A DNA stretch of 64,000 bases, from contig BQJC01000005.1 in assembly GCA_021604505.1 (NCBI GenBank), positions 1-64,000 on the forward strand, given 5' to 3'. A program made the position numbers and the translations under genes. Every line of letters starts with the position of its first letter. The first letter of the stretch is position 1. This DNA is from Nitrospinaceae bacterium (GTDB lineage Bacteria > Nitrospinota > Nitrospinia > Nitrospinales > VA-1). The notes under the pieces were generated by a model, which worked only from the letters and a program-made list of their open reading frames with translations, was not told the origin of the DNA and ran no database searches. Shown piece by piece: positions 7,981-11,386 of this stretch.

Positions 7981-8781
7981 TTGGATTTTGCTTCCTTTAT
8001 AGGAATTGTTTCAGGAATTTCGCTGATCGTCACCGCCATTTATATGGGCAGCGGCTTCGATATTTTTGTGAACGGACCGGGCCTCATGATCGTTTTAGGG
8101 GGAACCGTGGCCGCCACCCTGATCACATTCCAGATGAAAAACGTTTTTTCAGCCTTCAAAGCGGCGCTTTTTGTGTTCTCGGAGAAAAACCAGGACCCCA
8201 ACGACATGGTATCGACCATGGTCGAATTATGCACCCTCACCCGCCGCCAGGGAATCATTTCCTTGAGCCGTCTGGAAGTCAAATCCGATTTCCTGAAAAA
8301 GGTGTGTAACCTCATTTCCGATGGCACCAAAGAAGAAATGATGCGCGACACCCTGAACATTGAAATTGAATCCATGAAACAAAGGCATTTCATCATTCAG
8401 GACATATTCAGAAAAATGGCCGTGTATTCCCCCGCGTTTGGCATGCTGGGAACTTTGATCGGTCTGATCCAGATGTTGACCCAATTAAACGATCCGGAAA
8501 ACGTCGGGCCCGCCATGGCTGTCGCTCTCTTGACGACTTTTTACGGAATGCTGCTATCCACCATGATATTCAACCCGATTGCAGGAAAATTACGGGCAAG
8601 AACCATGGTCGAAGTCATCAACCTGGAAATCATTTTTGAAGGTGCGATCTCCATCTTGCAGGACAACAACCCCTTACTGGTTTATGAAAAGCTATCCTCC
8701 TATATCCCTGCGACCCTTCGCCGGCCCATGCATCAACAGGTACTGAAGAAAAAATTCGCGTTGAACATTCAAAAAATTTGA
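7981..8781 (+). CDS. motA: Flagellar motor stator protein MotA
   Basis: A 266-residue inner-membrane proton- or sodium-channel subunit of the flagellar stator. The start is TTG at 7981 with AAAGGTG six bases upstream. Four membrane segments are visible: residues about 5-22 and 30-50, then AFGMLGTLIGLIQML and GPAMAVALLTTFYGMLLSTMIF with a large cytoplasmic loop between. The family prolines in the last two helices are present (YSPAFGMLGT, FNPIAGK). The gene is directly followed by motB, whose ATG overlaps the motA stop by one base. A PomA-type sodium stator is an alternative that residues alone do not settle. Confidence 0.93.
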   Translation: MDFASFIGIVSGISLIVTAIYMGSGFDIFVNGPGLMIVLGGTVAATLITFQMKNVFSAFKAALFVFSEKNQDPNDMVSTMVELCTLTRRQGIISLSRLEVKSDFLKKVCNLISDGTKEEMMRDTLNIEIESMKQRHFIIQDIFRKMAVYSPAFGMLGTLIGLIQMLTQLNDPENVGPAMAVALLTTFYGMLLSTMIFNPIAGKLRARTMVEVINLEIIFEGAISILQDNNPLLVYEKLSSYIPATLRRPMHQQVLKKKFALNIQKI

Positions 8782-10271
8782 TGTCTGAAAAAATGAACCC
8801 AAATCAAAATCCCGAGGCCATGCCGCACAGCAATCAAATCGGAAAATTAAAGGAACAACTGCGCGTCAAATCTCTCGAGGTAAAAAAGAAGGACGCCGAG
8901 AAAACCAGGCAGGAGCACAAGGTTCTGCAGGTCATTGAAATCAGCAAGAAAAAAATATCTGATTTAAAGCTCGAAATCGAGAAGGTCAATAGTTCGCTTC
9001 GTGCTTCCTCGCAAAACAACCCGGCCTCGGGGGAAACAGCAGAGTCTCCTAAAGAATCGGACAAACAATTATTAAAAAATGTCAAAATCACTGAAGCTAT
9101 TAAAAAGTTAAAGCGTGAAAATCTAGCTCTCACCGAGCGGATCAAAGCTGAAAAGGCAAAACGGGAACAAATACTCAGGGAAAAAGCCCGCTTGCTGGAG
9201 GAAGTTGAGCGGCTCGCAGGGAGTTCGGAAAAAGTTTCAGAATTAAATGAACAAATCCTAAAATTAAATCAGGATTTCGAGGACAGCCACAAAAAACACA
9301 AAAAACTAATAGAAGAAAAAGACAAACTACTCGCCAAATACCAGCAAATTTTAGAAGAAAAAAGAGCCGAAGAAGCTGAAGGAGAAAACGCCAGGAAAAT
9401 CAACCTGGAGTTAAAAACACAACTGCAGCGTCTCACCGCTATCAAGGATAGCCTGGAACTGGAGAGAAAAAGTCTCGAATCCCAACTTAAAGAAAAAAAA
9501 CGCCTCTTCGAAAGAAAGCTGGCCGAGAAGGTTAAAAACGTCGAGGAGGAATGGGAGAAAAAAATCAAAATCCTCGGCCAGAAAAAACAGCGGGTCAACC
9601 ATTTTGCCGAAGATATCATGGAAGAAGCGGAGGCGCCGTTGTGGATGATCACCTATTCAGACATGGCCACCCTGCTCCTCACATTTTTCATCCTCTATTA
9701 TTCGATCGCCGCCCAGAATCTGGGGAAATTCATGGATGCGGTCATGGAAGAATCAAAAGAAAACCTCGGGATGATCGAATTGCTCGATGTCTCCAAGATA
9801 AGAACCACCCTGAGAAATCTCAAGGCGTTCGAGTCGAATAATATTGTCAATGATATAGAAAACTTTGCGAAAGATGAAAATGATCTTGGTATCACCGAAG
9901 AAAATTCGAAAATCGTAGTGCGTATCCCAGGCCAGACACTTTTCCAGCCATCGTCCGCTGTTTTAGAAAAAATCGGATGGCCTGTGCTTGAAGAGACTGC
10001 GAAGATTTTTAAAAAATACCCGCACTACAAAGTTCATATTCAGGGTCATACGGATGACACGCCCATATCGACCGATAAATTTCCCACCAATTGGGAGCTT
10101 TCTTCGACGCGGGCCACGGCGGTGCTCCGGTTTTTAATCGATAAAGGTCTAGATCCCGGCCGGTTGACGGCAACCGGCTACGCAGACACGTTTCCCCTGA
10201 GTCCTAACACTTCGGCACAGGGACGGGCAAAAAACAGGAGGGTTGAATTTGTTCTGGAAAAAATCGACTGA
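8781..10271 (+). CDS. motB: Stator protein MotB with a ~285-residue cytoplasmic coiled coil
   Basis: A 496-residue protein; a TTG one codon earlier is an alternative start. The C-terminal part is ordinary MotB: one membrane helix (about 288-310) with the ion-binding Asp295 in YSDMATLLLTFF, then an OmpA-like peptidoglycan-binding domain (about 385-496, with QGHTDDTPI and GRAKNRRVEF). Ahead of the helix, where MotB proteins normally have some 20-30 residues, there are about 285 highly charged Lys/Glu-rich residues with leucine heptads (for example LKRENLALTERI, ARLLEEVERL, LNEQILKLNQD). This part would sit in the cytoplasm. The gene is cotranscribed with motA and overlaps the PilZ gene by 29 bases. 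Confidence 0.92.
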   Translation: MSEKMNPNQNPEAMPHSNQIGKLKEQLRVKSLEVKKKDAEKTRQEHKVLQVIEISKKKISDLKLEIEKVNSSLRASSQNNPASGETAESPKESDKQLLKNVKITEAIKKLKRENLALTERIKAEKAKREQILREKARLLEEVERLAGSSEKVSELNEQILKLNQDFEDSHKKHKKLIEEKDKLLAKYQQILEEKRAEEAEGENARKINLELKTQLQRLTAIKDSLELERKSLESQLKEKKRLFERKLAEKVKNVEEEWEKKIKILGQKKQRVNHFAEDIMEEAEAPLWMITYSDMATLLLTFFILYYSIAAQNLGKFMDAVMEESKENLGMIELLDVSKIRTTLRNLKAFESNNIVNDIENFAKDENDLGITEENSKIVVRIPGQTLFQPSSAVLEKIGWPVLEETAKIFKKYPHYKVHIQGHTDDTPISTDKFPTNWELSSTRATAVLRFLIDKGLDPGRLTATGYADTFPLSPNTSAQGRAKNRRVEFVLEKID

Positions 10272-10650
10272 TAAAGACAAAGGCTCCAGTAAACTCTTTA
10301 AAAACCCCGAAGAAATCCGCGGGTCTTTCAGAGTCCATCCGTCTGCCGAGGCGCCCATTGAAATGATTTTGGATAACAAACCGGTTTCAGTTTTAAATAT
10401 CTCATCAGGCGGCCTTTGTTGCGTAAATGATGGATTTGAAGTCGGGGGTATTTATCTCTTTCATTTCATTCTTCCCGGCATCGACAAGAAAGTCACGGGA
10501 AAGATTGAAATCCGGGAAATCACTGAAAAAAACCATTGCCGGTGTAAGTTTCAGAACCTGCTTCCAGAATATCAGGACCTAATCCACCGCTACACGCTAA
10601 ACCGGCAGAAAGAGGACCTCGAGAAAAATAAAAAGCGCTCCACCACTTGA
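10243..10650 (+). CDS. PilZ-domain protein, overlapping motB
   Basis: A 135-residue protein. The start is TTG at 10243, inside the end of motB, preceded by a strong CAGGAGG. The PilZ cyclic-di-GMP signature is largely present: an Arg pair region (RGSFRVHP, residues about 26-33) and a NISSGG turn (about 53-58) in the N/DxSxxG position. The usual first motif RxxxR is imperfect (RGSFR). A charged, disordered tail ends the protein. Overlap with motB suggests coupled translation and a role at the stator, as known for PilZ proteins such as YcgR that slow the motor when cyclic-di-GMP is high. Confidence 0.8.
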   Translation: MNLFWKKSTDKDKGSSKLFKNPEEIRGSFRVHPSAEAPIEMILDNKPVSVLNISSGGLCCVNDGFEVGGIYLFHFILPGIDKKVTGKIEIREITEKNHCRCKFQNLLPEYQDLIHRYTLNRQKEDLEKNKKRSTT

Positions 10651-10753: not shown

Positions 10754-11386
10754 ATGAACAATGAAGGCACAAACGACTCCAAATGGTCTTCCCATGAAAT
10801 GGAAATGCTGACTCACGTTGAAGTCTTTCTGCAAAAACCGGGCTTGATGAAAAAAGCCGAGAGATATCTGACAGCCCTCGGAGAGGAAATGATCCACGAG
10901 TTGGCCCAGAGCAAAATCCTCTTTCCACCGGACACCAAGCTGGAAAAAGTCCAATTGACCCGCGGAGAAAACCACAAAGGCTTTCCCTATCTGTCCCTTG
11001 ATATTCCACAAAAATTTTCCAAAACCGAGATGTTTGCTTACCGGACCCTGTTCTGGTGGGGGCACTACCTGGGATTTTCGCTGATTTTAAAAGGCGAGGA
11101 TTTGCCCAGATACACGAAAAATCTCTTGAACGAAAAAGAGGATCCGCGGTTATCGGATGTTTATCTGGCCGCCGCACCAACCCCCTGGGAATGGAGCGCA
11201 ACCGACAAAAACTTCAAAAAAATTTGTGAGACATCCGGAGAAGAGCTTCAGAAAGTCATCGAGGCCGTCGAATACATCAAGCTGGTGCGATTTCACCCGA
11301 TGAACGACAAATCCTTTGCCTCACTCGATTGGGTCGGCGCGGGAATCACCGCTTGGAAGGATTTATCAAAAGTTACTGAGGCGTGA
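10754..11386 (+). CDS. Hypothetical protein
   Basis: A 210-residue protein of no family I recognise. I chose the ATG at 10754; an in-frame TTG at 10721 would add 11 residues. It is soluble, without signal peptide or membrane helix, and has helical, charged N- and C-terminal parts. A central aromatic patch (FAYRTLFWWGHYLGFSLIL) and PTPWEWSATDKNF look like a hydrophobic core or ligand pocket. It follows the motB-pilZ operon by about 100 bases on the same strand and is convergent with the metallo-beta-lactamase-fold gene. Function unknown. Confidence 0.65.
   Translation: MNNEGTNDSKWSSHEMEMLTHVEVFLQKPGLMKKAERYLTALGEEMIHELAQSKILFPPDTKLEKVQLTRGENHKGFPYLSLDIPQKFSKTEMFAYRTLFWWGHYLGFSLILKGEDLPRYTKNLLNEKEDPRLSDVYLAAAPTPWEWSATDKNFKKICETSGEELQKVIEAVEYIKLVRFHPMNDKSFASLDWVGAGITAWKDLSKVTEA

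What the first reader, a model, noticed from the sequence alone, without database searches (positions are those of the whole stretch)
8781..10271. MotB with a 285-residue cytoplasmic coiled-coil extension
The stator ion channel and peptidoglycan domain are normal, but the region before the membrane helix is about ten times longer than in standard MotB and shows dense heptads. This would project a coiled-coil rod or ring into the cytoplasm beside the C-ring. It may bind MotA, the switch or the adjacent PilZ protein. I know of no well-described MotB of this build.
Basis: partly seen in the sequence, partly recalled or inferred. Interest (0 to 1): 0.72.

Follow-up and report, generated by a model that had tools for sequence, protein, structure and literature searches.

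The report
Flagellar stator protein with cytoplasmic coiled-coil arm
In one order of marine nitrite-oxidising bacteria (Nitrospinales), two of the three kinds of flagellar motor 'stator' protein carry a long, helical cytoplasmic arm with a conserved tip that ordinary MotB proteins lack, so these motors may have an extra docking or control point that I found described nowhere.

Summary
The ORF at 8781-10271 is a MotB (Asp-bearing membrane helix, plug, OmpA domain) with about 286 residues before the membrane helix; MotBs from other phyla have about 20-60. The tail shows heptad periodicity, is predicted helical and has no second membrane segment. It is not one continuous rod: a conserved 60-residue N-terminal 'cap' helix, a disordered linker, then about 189 helical residues in three pieces. 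It is no assembly artefact: it recurs throughout Nitrospinales (phylum Nitrospinota) and is absent from other orders of the class and other phyla sampled. A second, divergent MotB in the same genomes carries a homologous cap; the third MotB is ordinary. Tailed MotBs vanish where flagellar genes vanish. Thermodesulfobacteriota carry the same MotA-MotB-PilZ operon with a tail-less MotB, so PilZ coupling is older than the tail. Best explanation, inferred: the cap is a docking tip held below the membrane by the coiled-coil arm, recruiting or retaining both tailed stators at one cytoplasmic partner. The 'ring' idea has no support and PilZ as the tail's dedicated partner is weakened. The family is known; the architecture is a new variant and the binding partner is unknown.

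The parts
7981..8781 (+). MotA (A subunit of the stator), 266 aa, PomA-like
   Evidence: Pfam MotA_ExbB 3.9e-25; NCBIfam PomA model E 5e-69, below its cut-off; about 54-88% identical in orthologous operons
8781..10271 (+). MotB with long N-terminal extension, 496 aa (possible start also at 8820)
8820..9011 (+). Conserved cap module (residues 14-77; consensus KEQLRxKxxELKK), best conserved part of the tail, homologous to the cap of the second tailed MotB
9012..9056 (+). Variable linker, predicted disordered (residues 78-92)
   Evidence: AlphaFold2 pLDDT < 50; mean pairwise identity 0.16 over 78-97
9057..9623 (+). Predicted coiled-coil arm (residues 93-281; helices 93-144, 149-195, 202-281)
9639..9755 (+). 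MotB membrane helix and plug region (residues 287-325; membrane Asp is residue 294)
   Evidence: Pfam MotB_plug; model; invariant D294
9939..10238 (+). OmpA-like peptidoglycan-binding domain
   Evidence: Pfam OmpA 1.2e-17; matches solved MotB/PomB structures
10243..10650 (+). PilZ protein, starting inside the 3' end of motB; c-di-GMP motifs RGSFR and NISSGG present
   Evidence: Pfam PilZ 3.3e-5; motifs; overlap; conserved operon
10754..11386 (+). Conserved 210-aa protein of unknown family, fourth gene of the operon in most Nitrospinales

Best explanation
This is a flagellar stator B subunit in which an ordinary MotB (ion-channel helix, plug, peptidoglycan anchor) has gained a cytoplasmic arm. 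Two arms from the MotB dimer probably pair as a parallel coiled coil that leaves the MotA ring through its centre and reaches up to about 28 nm (189 residues at 0.15 nm each, if straight), ending in a flexible linker and a conserved cap helix of about 60 residues. The cap most likely docks on a cytoplasmic partner shared by the two tailed stators, recruiting or holding stator units at the motor (or the cell pole) from the cytoplasmic side, in addition to the peptidoglycan anchor. Shown here: the anatomy (from sequence and prediction), the conservation, the shared cap, the order-wide distribution and loss together with flagella. Inferred: dimeric rod, docking function, partner.
For: Cap core is the best conserved tail segment (mean pairwise identity 0.51 for residues 14-33, against 0.16-0.38 in the rest of the tail). 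An HMM of the family-A cap finds the N-terminus, and nothing else, of family-B MotBs (E 2e-3 to 3e-14; hhalign probability 98.7%) although the rest of the two tails diverges. In 77 Nitrospinota genomes the cap hits fall in MotB-A/B frames, contig-end or interrupted fragments and one marginal hit aside, which points to one docking site used by stators. The cap occurs in 48 of the phylum's 77 genomes, in all four families of the order and in none of 13 other-order genomes; 0 of 198 Thermodesulfobacteriota genomes have it. No MotB passes Pfam's cut-off where FliG and FlhA are absent or broken in well-covered genomes (G011, G012, G017). Flexible linker plus rod fits a tethered tip.
Against: No partner has been identified. 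The cap of family A was lost in G002, G003 and genus g2, and the tail is shorter in g2 and probably in g7, so it is not essential to the A stator. The AlphaFold2 model is a monomer with moderate confidence (mean pLDDT 74.5, pTM 0.34), so the parallel dimer and straight rod are assumptions.
Confidence: 0.42

Rival explanations
1. Gating arm: the tail senses MotA-FliG contact or c-di-GMP-loaded PilZ and transmits it to the ion channel, acting as a brake or clutch on the cytoplasmic side.
For: A PilZ gene with both c-di-GMP motifs starts inside motB and the operon is conserved. In Salmonella a GFP fused to the MotB N-terminus makes the channel leak and the authors propose that the N-terminal tail couples gating to MotA-FliG contact (PMC7564593). 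Some families add a cNMP-PAS-GGDEF-EAL gene upstream of motA.
Against: The MotA-MotB-PilZ operon exists in 13 loci, mostly Thermodesulfobacteriota, with tail-less MotB, so PilZ control does not need a tail; the family-B tailed MotB has no PilZ neighbour.
Confidence: 0.25
2. Second-messenger scaffold: the tails hold cyclic-nucleotide enzymes (class I adenylate cyclase for family B, PilZ or GGDEF-EAL proteins for family A) next to the stator, making it a surface or load sensor.
For: Where its neighbourhood is on the contig, every family-B motB examined is followed by a class I adenylate cyclase gene, motA and a pentapeptide-repeat gene; family A sits with PilZ.
Against: In two lineages both family-B stator genes are gone but the cyclase and pentapeptide genes stay, and the outgroup cyclases examined are not next to stator genes: association only.
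Confidence: 0.13
3. Passive spacer: the coiled coil only stabilises the MotB dimer or MotA ring and has no specific partner.
For: The middle of the tail is poorly conserved and varies in length.
Against: The N-terminal cap, furthest from the membrane, is the most conserved part and shared between paralogues.
Confidence: 0.15
4. Non-flagellar 5:2 motor (for example a Zorya-like or gliding motor).
For: PADLOC ZorB models match (E down to 7e-20), mostly in the OmpA domain.
Against: MotA gives no Zorya hit; the protein has the flagellar plug; the genome has FliG and FlhA and the tailed MotBs disappear with them. In Zorya the tail belongs to ZorA, the A subunit (PMC11890865).
Confidence: 0.05

Closest known systems
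Flagellar stator B subunit MotB / PomB
   Same: Membrane helix with catalytic Asp, plug, OmpA-like peptidoglycan-binding domain, motA directly upstream
   Different: About 286 instead of about 20-60 residues before the membrane helix, with coiled coil and conserved cap
MotA-MotB-PilZ operon of Thermodesulfobacteriota
   Same: Same gene order; MotA about 60% identical; MotB core is the sister group in the tree
   Different: MotB there has about 23 residues before the Asp; no homologue of the unknown fourth gene was found beside it
Zorya ZorAB
   Same: 5:2 motor family with a long cytoplasmic tail (PMC11890865)
   Different: Tail is on the five A subunits and the system is anti-phage defence; here the tail is on the two B subunits of a flagellar stator
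GldLM gliding motor
   Same: 5:2 motor with a long cytoplasmic tail proposed to anchor it to a cytoskeletal partner (PMC9389320)
   Different: Tail is on GldL, the A-type subunit

Membership tests
Flagellar MotB | Membrane helix with conserved Asp and plug | tested here: met
   MotB_plug 2e-11; D294 invariant in 26 orthologues
Flagellar MotB | C-terminal OmpA-like peptidoglycan-binding domain | tested here: met
   OmpA 1.2e-17
Flagellar MotB | Partner motA directly upstream | tested here: met
Flagellar MotB | Occurs with, and is lost with, flagellar rotor genes | tested here: met
   FliG and FlhA present in G000; G012 and G017 lack both, G011 has a broken FlhA and no FliG; none has a MotB over the cut-off
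Flagellar MotB | Short cytoplasmic N-terminus (usual, not strictly defining) | tested here: not met
   about 286 residues; MotBs of other phyla are short wherever measurable
Flagellar MotB | Conducts ions and drives rotation | not testable with these tools
   needs experiment
Zorya ZorB | Paired with a ZorA having a long C-terminal tail | tested here: not met
   MotA is 266 aa with no PADLOC hit
Zorya ZorB | ZorC/ZorD/ZorE effector genes alongside | tested here: inconclusive
   Only MotA, MotB and PilZ were scanned against PADLOC; the next genes read by eye as folC-like and lptD-like
Parallel dimeric coiled coil | Heptad periodicity and helicity | tested here: met
Parallel dimeric coiled coil | Parallel two-stranded pairing | not testable with these tools
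   only single chains can be folded here

The most novel reading that the evidence does not exclude
Nitrospinales motors have a second, cytoplasmic stator anchor: a coiled-coil arm on the stationary MotB dimer whose shared cap docks two different stator types on one undiscovered cytoplasmic scaffold, so stator exchange would be controlled from inside the cell as well as through the cell wall.
Probability: 0.25. Interest if true: 0.75.

Novelty: new variant of a known kind. Interest (0 to 1): 0.52.

Why it matters
Stators are thought to be held at the motor by peptidoglycan, periplasmic scaffolds and MotA-FliG contact. A conserved cytoplasmic arm on the stationary MotB dimer, present in two paralogous stator types and lost with flagella, suggests an additional cytoplasmic docking or control point. 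It gives a defined bait (the 60-residue cap) for finding the partner, and a natural test of what the MotB N-terminus does.

Tried and rejected
Assembly or annotation fusion: rejected, since the same single frame occurs in dozens of genomes. Tail common in other phyla: rejected for the samples taken (named loci; 36 named genomes; 100 Pseudomonadota genomes, whose match list was cut off). Eighteen of the longest or most doubtful MotB frames from other phyla were opened: in nearly all the likely start lies close to the membrane helix and the extra length lies elsewhere; none shows a coiled-coil stretch before it. Tail as the reason for PilZ coupling: weakened by the tail-less MotA-MotB-PilZ operon. 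The unknown fourth gene as obligatory tail partner: weakened, as it persists in G011 and G017, which lack MotB. Zorya: rejected. A fold comparison of the unknown protein gave no confident match; weak recurring hits to bilin reductases (E 0.06-2, TM-score about 0.3) are only a lead. One origin of tailed MotBs A and B: the core tree separates them but a single clade is not rejected (AU p = 0.154), so duplication and transfer of the tail cannot be told apart. My first tree left out family B because of a faulty search pattern, and the first attempt at extracting caps failed for the same kind of reason; both were redone.

Full report
Observation. The frame 8781-10271 encodes a 496-aa MotB. Pfam finds the MotB plug/membrane segment and an OmpA domain at the C-terminus, and the profile of its orthologues matches solved MotB and PomB structures over the C-terminal 210 residues. 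The first 286 residues have no Pfam family and no hydrophobic segment, so by the known MotB topology they lie in the cytoplasm. Their hydrophobic residues repeat every 3.44 residues (0 of 500 shuffles as strong; most orthologues peak between 3.4 and 3.6) and a heptad register scores 4.9 standard deviations above shuffles. AlphaFold2 predicts helices 16-77, 93-144, 149-195 and 202-281 with a disordered linker at 78-92. Orthologues start at the position of Met14, so the start codon may be 8820 rather than 8781.

Organism and distribution. Named relatives carrying the tail are Nitrospina and Nitrospinaceae, so the window is from order Nitrospinales, phylum Nitrospinota. The genome has three MotBs: this one (A), a 440-aa one with a tail of about 200 residues (B) and an ordinary 270-aa one (C). 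Across 77 genomes of the phylum, frames of about 450-600 aa occur in the four families of the order and never in the other families of the class, whose listed MotB frames are at most 317 aa. MotBs from other phyla have about 19-57 residues before the membrane Asp, and the longer or doubtful frames opened individually show no coiled-coil tail. One unplaced 'Nitrospinia' MotB (L072) has about 104 residues there and was not examined.

The cap. The first 60 residues (KEQLRxKxxELKKxxxEK...) hold the best conserved part of the tail (mean pairwise identity 0.51 for the core, 0.16-0.38 elsewhere in the tail). A profile of the A caps recovers the N-terminus of all 17 B proteins and scores nothing else in them; profile-profile probability is 98.7%. 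Genome-wide, cap hits lie in MotB-A/B frames (fragments and one marginal hit aside), in 48 of 77 Nitrospinota genomes and in none of 13 genomes of other orders or 198 Thermodesulfobacteriota genomes. Some A proteins have lost the cap (G002, G003; genus g2).

Link to flagella. G000 has FliG and FlhA. Well-covered genomes of the same family that lack FliG and have no or broken FlhA (G011, G012, G017) have no MotB over the family cut-off. Four genomes with tailed MotB but no detected FliG (G023, G032, G042, G045) do have FlhA (in G023 only a fragment), so FliG is probably missing from those assemblies. This supports a flagellar role; motility was not tested.

Operons. Family A is motA-motB-pilZ plus, in most genomes, a gene of unknown family; pilZ starts within motB and most PilZ proteins keep RxxxR and [DN]xSxxG motifs, the second altered in one cluster of f2 genomes. 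In two f2 genomes examined a gene lies just upstream of motA; the one scanned has cNMP, PAS, GGDEF and EAL domains. Family B is motB', class I adenylate cyclase, motA', pentapeptide-repeat gene in all loci long enough to show it. In two lineages (g14, g2) both stator genes of this operon are gone while the cyclase and pentapeptide genes stay in place.

Evolution. The A core is sister to tail-less Thermodesulfobacteriota MotBs (support 100/97) and B lies apart, though one A+B clade is not rejected (p 0.154). Those tail-less relatives sit in motA-motB-pilZ operons. The simplest reading is that the tail was added to an existing PilZ-coupled stator in the ancestor of Nitrospinales, and was also acquired by, or inherited with, family B.

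Mechanism. Because the most conserved part is the far tip, is shared by two stator types and is separated from a weakly conserved rod by a flexible linker, a docking tip on an arm is the most economical explanation (0.42). A gating role fits the Salmonella result that a MotB N-terminal fusion perturbs the channel (PMC7564593) and the PilZ neighbour, but PilZ coupling predates the tail (0.25). A passive spacer (0.15), a scaffold for cyclic-nucleotide enzymes (0.13) and a non-flagellar motor (0.05) are less likely.

Literature. Searches for MotB with a cytoplasmic coiled coil or long N-terminus found no description. A 2025 survey of 379 MotAB-type pairs reports limited variation among flagellar stators; a word search of it found nothing on Nitrospinota or coiled coils (PMC12505986). 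Long cytoplasmic tails are known on the A-type subunits ZorA (PMC11890865) and GldL (PMC9389320). The library holds open-licence papers only, so absence is not proof.

Noticed in passing
L038:8573-13808 (G000 C1); also L042, L044, L065, L156-L167: A second tailed-stator operon, motB' - class I adenylate cyclase - motA' - pentapeptide-repeat gene, conserved across Nitrospinales. Class I cyclases are best known from gammaproteobacteria (own knowledge); a stator operon interleaved with one is unusual.
   Followed up: partly
L196 (G042) and L197 (G005): Same locus with both stator genes missing but the cyclase and pentapeptide genes retained: paired loss of motB' and motA'.
   Followed up: yes
window 10754-11386: Conserved 210-aa protein without Pfam or PDB sequence match, confident AlphaFold2 model (pLDDT 91, pTM 0.88), weak recurring similarity to ferredoxin-dependent bilin reductases; kept in two genomes that lack MotB.
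   Followed up: partly
L043:7711-9822 and L045:7625-9742: A protein upstream of motA in f2 genomes; the L043 copy carries cNMP-binding, PAS, GGDEF and EAL domains, and the L045 copy occupies the same place.
   Followed up: no
L072: An unplaced Nitrospinia MotB with about 104 residues before the membrane Asp: a possible intermediate length, not examined.
   Followed up: no
G011:C5:292151-293624: flhA broken by a TGA in a 98%-complete genome without FliG or MotB: flagellar genes apparently decaying.
   Followed up: no
window 10243-10271: pilZ reading frame starts inside the 3' end of motB with a GGAGG-like site just before a TTG, suggesting coupled translation.
   Followed up: no
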